Under the pieces are notes generated by a model. That model was not told where the DNA came from. It did no database searches and saw nothing but the letters and a program-made list of their open reading frames with translations. Below are positions 27,301-30,300 of a stretch of DNA of 64,000 nt, piece by piece. Position numbers and translations under genes: made by a program. This stretch comes from Antedon mediterranea. Its lineage: Eukaryota > Echinodermata > Crinoidea > Comatulida > Antedonidae. The stretch spans positions 34,468,501-34,532,500 of the forward strand of contig NC_092672.1 of the NCBI RefSeq assembly GCF_964355755.1, written 5' to 3'. How positions within the stretch are numbered: position 1 is the first letter of the stretch; each line of letters starts with the position of its first letter.

Positions 27301-30300
27301 AAACATAAATAAATGGTTAAATTCAACCAGAAATCCATTGGCTTGCATGCAGCCAATTTGACTATTTTTTTCTTTAAATTACAGTTTTTTTTCAGGTAAA
27401 TAATTTTTTTTTCCGATCTAATTTTTGGTCAAAATGGATAATTATTATGTGAAATTAAAATGGCATATTCAACAACAAAAATTTAAATACGGTAATAATT
27501 TTTTTTAGGGGGGAACAATACATCTTTAATTTTGTAATCTAGATGAACTTTGACCTTTTTAACCATTATCATGAATATTTAATATCATGACTTTATATGG
27601 AACATACCTTTAGGAGACGGTGTCACATAATCTAATACAGCCACACGTTTGCCAAAACCAGCCGCTGGAAAAAAAAAATTTTTATCTAACATTGATCATT
27701 TCAGCTCAAAATACACTGGACACAGGGATATAAAAAAAGTATGATTTTATTCAATTAAAAATGAAATATAAATCGTACCTTCTTTTGCACATGCCAATCC
27801 ACCAGATCCACCACCAATGACTACAAGGTCATATACTTCAGGTCCTAAAAAAAAATTTTTTTTTATACTATATGTAAAAATTTATCACACATTTAGCAAA
27901 ACAATTTAAGCACTAATAACAAAGAACTTATAACACAAGAATCTCCTGTTCGTCCGAAGCGCGTAACAATTTCGAAAGGCATTGTGGGATAAAATAGAGC
28001 TATGGGTGGCGCCATTGTGAGCCATGGAGTAGGGCACCCGCATCAAATTAGAAAGCCAAAATCATAGAGGGGATCTGCTAATGCTCTAGGGGGGATAGAG
28101 TAATTGACTGAGGAGTAGGGCGCCCGCATCAAATCAGAAAGTCAAAATCATAGAGGGGATCTGCTAATGCTCTAGGGGGGATAGAGTAATTGACCAAGGA
28201 GTAGGGCGCCCGCATCAAATCAGAAAGTCAAAATCATAGAGGGGATCTGCTAATACTCTAGAGGGGTAGAGTAATTGACTTCCTAGTTTGGAGGGGGCGC
28301 TTCTCCATGCTGTGAAATGGCGTCGCCCAGTTTGACCTTTTAACCCTGTACTTCCGATACTGTGTTTTGAATGCAAATTGAAGAACAGGAGATTCTTGTG
28401 TTATAAGTTCTTTGCTAATAATACTAATAAAGAAGGTTAGATAGTAGGGGCCTATGTCTAGCTAGCTATAGCCTAAAAACTAATAATAATAAAAATAATA
28501 TATGACTGTAATTTGATTGTTTGATTTGAATATGTTATGCGCGATTTGAACGAAAGAATTCCTTGCGCAATTTGAAATTGTGCAAAGAATTCTTGCGCAA
28601 TTTGAAATTGCGCACGAATTTTCTTGCGCAATATTAAATTGCGCAATCAACTTGCGCAATATAAAATTGCGCAAGAAAATCCTTGCGCAATTTAAAATTG
28701 CGCTGCACAATTTGTAAAATTGTCAAATTGCGCAGCAGAATTCTACCAGAATGCGTGCTAACGTCGACGATCGGTTAACAATAATAATTTATTCGAAACT
28801 AATAACTCAAAATGAAACATAATAAATGCGAAGATAACATGTGTATAATACACAACATAAATGGCATACACAATTAAATAATATTATCACTCTCATTGTA
28901 ACTTAAAATAAATCAAAATAAATGTAAAAATAACAAAAAGTAATGTAGTCTAGTAAATACACAACATAGTCTACCGCCACCAACGGTTAGACTTGCTATC
29001 AAAACATAGCCAGTATAGTAGGAGGCTAGAGTAGTATTAGCCGCCCGCCGTGCACGTGCCCGCCGGGAACTCCACCTTTGTGGTCCTTTGTCGGGTCTTC
29101 GACGGTATGCTAACAATAACAATATTTTCACTACTATAAAAAATAAGGAAATGCGATATTATCTTTAATTTTGAATCATTCTTAGAAATTACTATAAAAA
29201 TATGGGTGTGCATGATTTCACAATCTGTCGAAAAAAACCTTGCGCAATTTGCAGACTACTTGCGCAATTTAATACGTTGCTTGCGCAATTTGAAACAGAT
29301 TTTTCAATTCAAATTGCGCAAGGAATTCTTTGCGCAATTTAAAATTGCGCAAATCGTTCAAATCGCGCATAACAAATATACCATTATTTATTTAATATTA
29401 GTTGTTATACATATGTTATGCGCGATTTGAACGATTTGCGCAATTTGAAATTGCGCAAAAAAAATCCTTGCGCAATTTGAATTGAAACATGTGTTTCAAA
29501 TTGCGCAAGCAACGTATTAAATTGCGCAAGTAATCTGCAAATTGCGCAAGGTTTTTTTCGACAGATTGTGAAATCATGCACACCCATATTTTTATAGTAA
29601 TTTCTAAGAATGATTCAAAATTAAAGATAAATATCGCATTTCCTTATTTTAGTAGTGCAAATATTGTTATAAGTTAGCATACCGTCGAAGGAAAACGAAG
29701 CGGTGGTGTTCCACGGGCGGGCGGCCGGCTATACTACTCTAGCCTAGCTAGGGTCTGGACTACTGATACTGACTAGGTTACATGGCCTAGCTTAAACTAA
29801 TATTAAAAACTTAAAAAGTGAGTATTAAACATTATCTTCATTGAAATGGTCTTATTTATATAATAAAATACTAAATTTTAAACTCCTCTGCCTAGGCCTA
29901 GCCTAGCCATGTATGGGAAAATTTACAGTTCGCTTTCAAATTGCGCAAAGGTGTCATATTGCGCAAGAACTATCTTGCGCAATTTACAAATTGTGCAGCG
30001 CAATTTAAAATTGCGCAAAGATTTTCTTGCGCAATTTGAAATTGCGCAAGTTGATTGCGCAATTTTAAATTGCGCAAAAAAATCCTTGCGCAATTTTAAA
30101 TTGCGCAAGAATTCTTTGCGCAATTTAAAATTGCGCAAGGATTTTTTTGCGCAATTTCAAATTGCGCAAATCGTTCAAATCGCGCATAACACATATAATA
30201 TAAATGAATTGTTATTGTACTTAAGAAAAGCTAGAATCCTAGACTAGACTATCCCTACCAACATCATTTAGGATTTTTATGTGGCCATAGCGAAATATCA

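What the first reader, a model, noticed from the sequence alone, without database searches (positions are those of the whole stretch)
28533..30191. Undescribed-looking transposon family with subterminal TTGCGCAA palindrome arrays and 4-bp target duplications
Two elements of 841 and 778 bp share the ends TGTTATGCGCGATTTGAACG. Each has its own perfect 4-bp target duplication (AATA, CATA), so they moved independently. Over 30 TTGCGCA words, alternating with A/T spacers, could be transposase or host-factor binding sites, or fold into hairpin chains. The superfamily is open; 4-bp duplications would fit Sola-like or another less common group.
Basis: partly seen in the sequence, partly recalled or inferred. 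Interest (0 to 1): 0.75.

Follow-up and report, generated by a model that had tools for sequence, protein, structure and literature searches.

The report
Miniature transposon family with palindrome arrays
Two neighbouring copies of a small, protein-less jumping gene sit here; about 350 copies lie across this animal genome, each carrying around 17 copies of an 8-letter palindrome that is also the classic C/EBP transcription-factor site, and their insertion habits look like those of the Ginger2 transposons, although the enzyme that moves them was not found.

Summary
Two elements, 28533-29374 (842 bp, not 841) and 29414-30191 (778 bp), have identical 20-bp inverted ends and their own 4-bp duplications (AATA, CATA). 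All 33 TTGCGCAA words of the window lie inside them. The host genome (354 Mb, animal) holds about 350 copies. Of 35 distinct copies read, 30 have an exact 4-bp duplication. Related unoccupied sites carry the 4 bp once, so these are real insertions. Copies reach about 99% identity and form four subfamilies; they encode no protein, so they are MITEs. The target is T-R-[4 bp]-Y-A with a TATA-like core. With TGTTA ends, 4-bp duplications and about 65-bp inverted repeats, this fits the published description of Ginger2/TDD transposons. The assignment is by signature only: no copy with a transposase was found, and a Ginger2-like query met only Gypsy-type integrases. The palindrome is the C/EBP consensus site; it occurs about 17 times per copy, is spaced 15-16 bp, and is twice as conserved as the spacers between sites. 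Binding by a transposase or by host C/EBP is inferred. The family looks new; the kind is known.

The parts
28529..28532 (.). target site duplication AATA, left copy, element 1
   Evidence: identical to 29375-29378
28533..29374 (+). element 1, 842 bp, subfamily 1 of the MITE family; no credible open reading frame
   Evidence: both 20-bp ends perfect; genome copies 92-99% identical over nearly the full length
28533..28703 (.). left end of element 1 with subterminal array of TTGCGCAA palindromes (part of the first unit is deleted after the 20-bp end)
29240..29374 (.). right palindrome array and right end of element 1
29375..29378 (.). target site duplication AATA, right copy, element 1
29410..29413 (.). 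target site duplication CATA, left copy, element 2
29414..30191 (-). element 2, 778 bp, subfamily 2, inserted in the opposite orientation to element 1
   Evidence: both 20-bp ends perfect; about 92-94% identical to other subfamily 2 copies in the middle region; inverted match to element 1
29414..29549 (.). short-array end of element 2 (conserved side shared by all subfamilies)
29941..30191 (.). long palindrome array of element 2; five 23-bp units TTGCGCAATTT-N-AAATTGCGCAA at 30027-30169
   Evidence: single-strand DNA fold of 30010-30159 z = -13.4
30192..30195 (.). target site duplication CATA, right copy, element 2

Best explanation
Both features are copies of one young family of non-autonomous cut-and-paste DNA transposons (MITEs). 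Shown: a transposase-type reaction joins the 20-bp ends to a T-R-[NNNN]-Y-A target cut with a 4-bp stagger, giving 4-bp duplications; copies as short as 49 and 83 bp, little more than the two ends, still look like complete insertions. Inferred: the enzyme is an integrase-like transposase of the Ginger2/TDD group acting in trans. Inferred: the subterminal TTGCGCAA arrays are repeated docking sites for that transposase or for a host bZIP factor of the C/EBP type, which help assemble the transposition complex or give the element access to active chromatin.
For: Family: 355+354 terminus matches, control 0; 88 of the first 100 listed ends form 44 inverted pairs, 388-1112 bp apart. Duplications: 30 of 35 distinct copies have exact 4-bp repeats; R at -1 in 30/30, Y at +1 in 27/30, T at -2 in 92% of 60 flanks. 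Insertion: paralogous empty sites carry CATA and CATG once. Recent: copies up to 99.3% identical. Ginger2 signature from PMC2836005: TGTNR ends, 4-bp duplication, RTATAY target, 50-180 bp TIRs; here TGTTA, 4 bp, TR[TATA-like]YA, about 65 bp. Arrays: mean 16.9 exact 8-mers per long copy, spacing mode 15-16 bp; sites vary 0.037 against 0.074 for spacers, permutation p = 0.003. TTGCGCAA is the C/EBP consensus (PMC10941009), and the host has two bZIP proteins with the C/EBP basic region NN(I/V)AVRKSR.
Against: No copy with a transposase was found. A Ginger2/KRBA2-like query that I wrote from memory (it scores as Integrase_H2C2 + rve) met only integrases of Gypsy type at no more than 38% identity. 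Only a minority of copies has exactly TATA as duplication (3 of 30); the rest are looser. No binding data for the arrays. The site-versus-spacer difference could partly reflect array homogenisation by unequal exchange.
Confidence: 0.55

Rival explanations
1. The MITE family belongs to another superfamily that makes 4-bp duplications (Sola, AcademX, IS481EU or an undescribed group), and the Ginger2-like ends and target are convergence.
For: No Ginger2 transposase found with a Ginger2-like query. IS481EU also has TGT..ACA ends and often 4-bp duplications, but also 15- and 25-bp ones (PMC10045372); AcademX makes 3-4 bp duplications (same paper).
Against: The published combination TGTNR + 4 bp + RTATAY is that of Ginger2. 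No 15- or 25-bp duplications among 35 copies were seen (lengths of 2-10 bp were tested and the 30 exact ones are 4 bp), and IS481EU was reported only from parabasalids. Sola and Academ transposases were not searched for.
Confidence: 0.35
2. The family is mobilised by Ginger1, whose transposase gene is present in this genome in many copies.
For: A 716-aa rve + OTU protein, the Ginger1 domain pair, is present in more than 20 near-identical places.
Against: The published Ginger1 target is CCGG or CCGT, whereas these copies use T-R-[NNNN]-Y-A. The two Ginger1 loci read (8.5 kb each) hold neither the terminus nor TTGCGCAA.
Confidence: 0.05
3. The arrays are not docking sites but fold-back DNA: they act as hairpin chains, for example in template switching, or are a by-product of tandem duplication at the ends.
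For: Single-strand DNA folds far beyond shuffles (z = -5.4, -13.4, -8.9). Array lengths vary by whole units between copies, as in slippage or unequal exchange.
Against: Any array of palindromes folds. The exact 8-mer, including mutable CpG steps, is conserved more than the spacers, while a hairpin would tolerate paired changes anywhere. Even spacing of 15-16 bp is not needed for folding.
Confidence: 0.25
4. A dispersed satellite or segmental duplication rather than a transposon.
For: Tandem unit structure inside the arrays; one solo terminus abuts a satellite of about 1.1-1.2 kb units.
Against: Unrelated flanks, defined ends, 4-bp duplications and paralogous empty sites.
Confidence: 0.01

Closest known systems
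Ginger2/TDD DNA transposons (Bao et al. 2010, PMC2836005), including non-autonomous Ginger2-1N1_NV
   Same: TGTNR ends, 4-bp duplications, AT-rich palindromic target with R and Y just outside the 4 bp, TIRs of tens of base pairs, short non-autonomous derivatives in high copy number
   Different: no transposase-bearing copy found; a further T/A outside the RTATAY target is preferred; I know of no report of TTGCGCAA arrays in Ginger2
Ginger1 (rve + OTU), present in this genome
   Same: integrase-related superfamily, 4-bp duplications, TGTNR ends
   Different: published CCGG/CCGT target; the two loci read carry neither these ends nor the palindromes
IS481EU / Banshee (PMC10045372)
   Same: TNT..AYA ends, short TIRs, 4-bp duplications in some families
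   Different: multiple discrete duplication lengths (4, 15, 25 bp); reported from parabasalids only
DNA transposons with subterminal transposase-binding repeats (Spm/En, Ac/Ds; from general knowledge)
   Same: many short motifs near both ends, needed for transposition in those systems
   Different: other superfamilies and duplication lengths; their motifs are not C/EBP palindromes

Membership tests
MITE (non-autonomous cut-and-paste transposon family) | short length, inverted terminal repeats, high copy number, no coding capacity | tested here: met
   740-880 bp typical, TIR about 65 bp, about 350 copies, no transposase-like ORF
MITE (non-autonomous cut-and-paste transposon family) | fixed-length target duplication and empty sites | tested here: met
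   30 of 35 with exact 4 bp; paralogous empty sites with single CATA/CATG
Ginger2/TDD | termini TGTNR | tested here: met
   TGTTA in nearly all ends read
Ginger2/TDD | 4-bp (animals) target duplication | tested here: met
Ginger2/TDD | target preference RTATAY | tested here: met
   R at -1 30/30, Y at +1 27/30, consensus of the 4 bp TATA at 55-60% per position; preference met, not exact identity
Ginger2/TDD | TIR of about 50-180 bp | tested here: met
   64-67 bp in four of six copies measured
Ginger2/TDD | transposase with H2C2 finger and DDE core, without GPY/F and YPYY | tested here: inconclusive
   no copy with these ends and a transposase found; Ginger2-like query hits only Gypsy-type integrases; the survey of ends is incomplete
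Ginger1 | CCGG/CCGT target | tested here: not met
   none of the 30 duplications is CCGG, CCGT or ACGG
IS481EU | discrete 4-, 15- and 25-bp duplications | tested here: not met
   30 of 35 exactly 4 bp, two read as 5; longer lengths were not needed to explain the copies, except that three copies show none
Sola | Sola transposase; 4-bp duplication | not tested
   length of duplication agrees; no Sola model or sequence at hand

The most novel reading that the evidence does not exclude
A transposon family that has built arrays of about 17 perfect C/EBP sites per copy and so scatters thousands of host transcription-factor sites (1,692 exact 23-bp double-site units) over the genome, using the host factor for its own mobility or expression and possibly rewiring nearby genes.
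Probability: 0.2. Interest if true: 0.65.

Novelty: new member of a known kind. Interest (0 to 1): 0.42.

Why it matters
The copies are young enough (up to 99% identical) to suggest recent movement, and the target rule is clear enough to predict the enzyme class. If the arrays bind C/EBP, the family is a natural test of whether a transposon uses a host factor as a docking site and how it spreads regulatory sites. If they bind the transposase, it gives a dense, evenly spaced site array for studying integrase-like cut-and-paste enzymes, whose excision step is poorly known.

Tried and rejected
Autonomous copy: (1) ends with a changed subterminal sequence (20 hits) were satellites, solo ends, host genes or MITE variants; (2) ends changed after base 16 (4 hits) were MITEs, including a 49-bp copy and one with a nested element; (3) long gaps in two copies: the one read holds a complete Gypsy element (L074), the other spans a Gypsy-like integrase hit (C10); (4) different interior next to the conserved right side gave nothing and next to the left side four hits, of which one is a known MITE and three could not be read; (5) rve and Ginger2-like protein searches are swamped by Gypsy-type integrases. 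The 'other integrase' beside a Gypsy fragment (L061-L064) has no such ends. Rfam: no match. A paper search for TTGCGCAA with 'transposable element' showed no animal transposon of this kind among the 11 titles.

Full report
What is there. The window is G000:C3:34468501-34532500 of a 354-Mb genome. It is an animal genome by its content: Gypsy and Ginger1 elements and C/EBP-type and other bZIP genes. Two elements lie at 28533-29374 (842 bp) and 29414-30191 (778 bp), in opposite orientation, 39 bp apart. Both have the perfect ends TGTTATGCGCGATTTGAACG...CGTTCAAATCGCGCATAACA and their own 4-bp duplications AATA and CATA. All 33 TTGCGCAA words of the window are inside them; 62,341 other bases have none. 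The region between the recognisable genes (pyridine-disulphide reductase exon at 22.4 kb, F-box-like ORF at 37-39 kb, both minus strand) shows no Pfam domain above cut-off in the ORFs tested.

Family. The 20-bp terminus has 355 + 354 matches with at most one mismatch and none for the reversed control, so about 350 copies. Of the first 100 listed ends, on C1, 88 form 44 inverted pairs 388-1112 bp apart (read). The 23-bp double palindrome TTGCGCAATTT-N-AAATTGCGCAA occurs 1,692 times exactly, control 0. I read 35 distinct complete copies. They fall into four interior types, with mean identity inside types 93-96% and best pairs 95.8-99.3%. Element 1 is type 1, element 2 type 2. All types share the short-array side for about 200 bp, while interiors differ. 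Two copies are only 49 and 83 bp long and still have perfect duplications (L077, L053), so little more than the ends is left in a copy that looks complete; they may also be internal deletions of longer copies after insertion.

Insertion chemistry. Thirty of 35 copies have exact 4-bp duplications. R stands at -1 in 30 of 30, Y at +1 in 27 of 30, T at -2 in 92% of the 60 flanks, and the four duplicated bases lean to TATA. Sites related to the flanks but lacking the element have the duplicated CATA (L029) and CATG (L036) once, in unbroken alignment. This shows insertion with a 4-bp stagger. In the other comparisons the empty site differs by an indel near the junction (L075/L029, L043), so I rest on the first two.

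Which superfamily. Bao et al. 2010 (PMC2836005) give for Ginger2: TGTNR ends, 4-bp duplications in animals, preference RTATAY, TIRs of 50-180 bp. The family here meets all four. Ginger1, whose rve + OTU gene is abundant in this genome, is published with CCGG/CCGT targets and does not fit; two Ginger1 loci carry neither the ends nor the palindromes. IS481EU has several discrete duplication lengths (PMC10045372) and does not fit. The decisive feature, a transposase between these ends, was not found. Several negative pattern designs showed only MITEs, lone ends or nested elements among the hits that could be read. A Ginger2/KRBA2-like query written from memory, which Pfam recognises as Integrase_H2C2 + rve, met only Gypsy-type integrases at no more than 38%; KRBA2 is attributed to Ginger2 in the literature (PMC12139883). 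So the Ginger2 assignment is by signature: it works like one, membership is unproven.

The arrays. Long copies carry 11-21 exact TTGCGCAA (mean 16.9), mostly 15 or 16 bp apart. Site columns vary half as much as spacer columns within the arrays (0.037 against 0.074, permutation p = 0.003), although each site holds a CpG on both strands, which is expected to mutate fast. This suggests selection on the word itself, although homogenisation by unequal exchange is not excluded. Single strands fold far better than shuffles (z -5 to -13), which any palindrome array would. TTGCGCAA is the reported consensus of C/EBP alpha and beta, with solved complexes (PMC10941009). This genome encodes two bZIP proteins with the C/EBP contact residues...RNNIAVRKSRNK... 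at C8:28400381 and ...KNNVAVRKSREK... at C8:3372323. Whether the docking protein is the transposase, C/EBP or both is not decided.

Verdict. A real, young, apparently unnamed MITE family of a known kind, most likely mobilised by a Ginger2-type transposase. The unusual part is the density of perfect C/EBP-type sites.

Noticed in passing
L072 (G000:C1:22632500-22641000) and L073 (G000:C9:7257500-7266000): Ginger1 transposons with a 716-aa rve + OTU protein, 99.5% identical over 7.7 kb between two chromosomes and present in more than 20 places; look recently active.
   Followed up: partly
L080 (G000:C8:3598400-3601200), about 240-1950: Another element nested in a MITE copy: inverted ends GGGTGTTTCGAAAC...GTTTCGAAACACCC with arrays of TATACGAAAAGGGAGACCC on both sides.
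   Followed up: no
L039 (G000:C1:14184300-14194250): A tandem satellite with units of about 1.1-1.2 kb runs up to 40 bp from a lone terminus of this family.
   Followed up: no
L055 (G000:C6:31216647 and downstream): A lone 20-bp terminus lies about 0.7 kb upstream of an exon resembling the N-terminus of NADPH-cytochrome P450 reductase (recognised by eye, not searched); possible promoter co-option.
   Followed up: no
window 24678-24959, 25328-25434, 26512-26601: Minisatellite of 21-bp units (AACAAGGTACCACCTCCCAGA) in three nearby places.
   Followed up: no
window 28026-28280: Three copies of an 86-bp tandem unit just upstream of element 1.
   Followed up: no
window 110-169, 921-969, 2133-2265, 23712-23751, 45539-45585, 55980-56020: A dispersed 21-bp repeat (TGATATGCCCAAATATGGTAG), also seen inside L055 and L057; probably part of another repeat family.
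   Followed up: no
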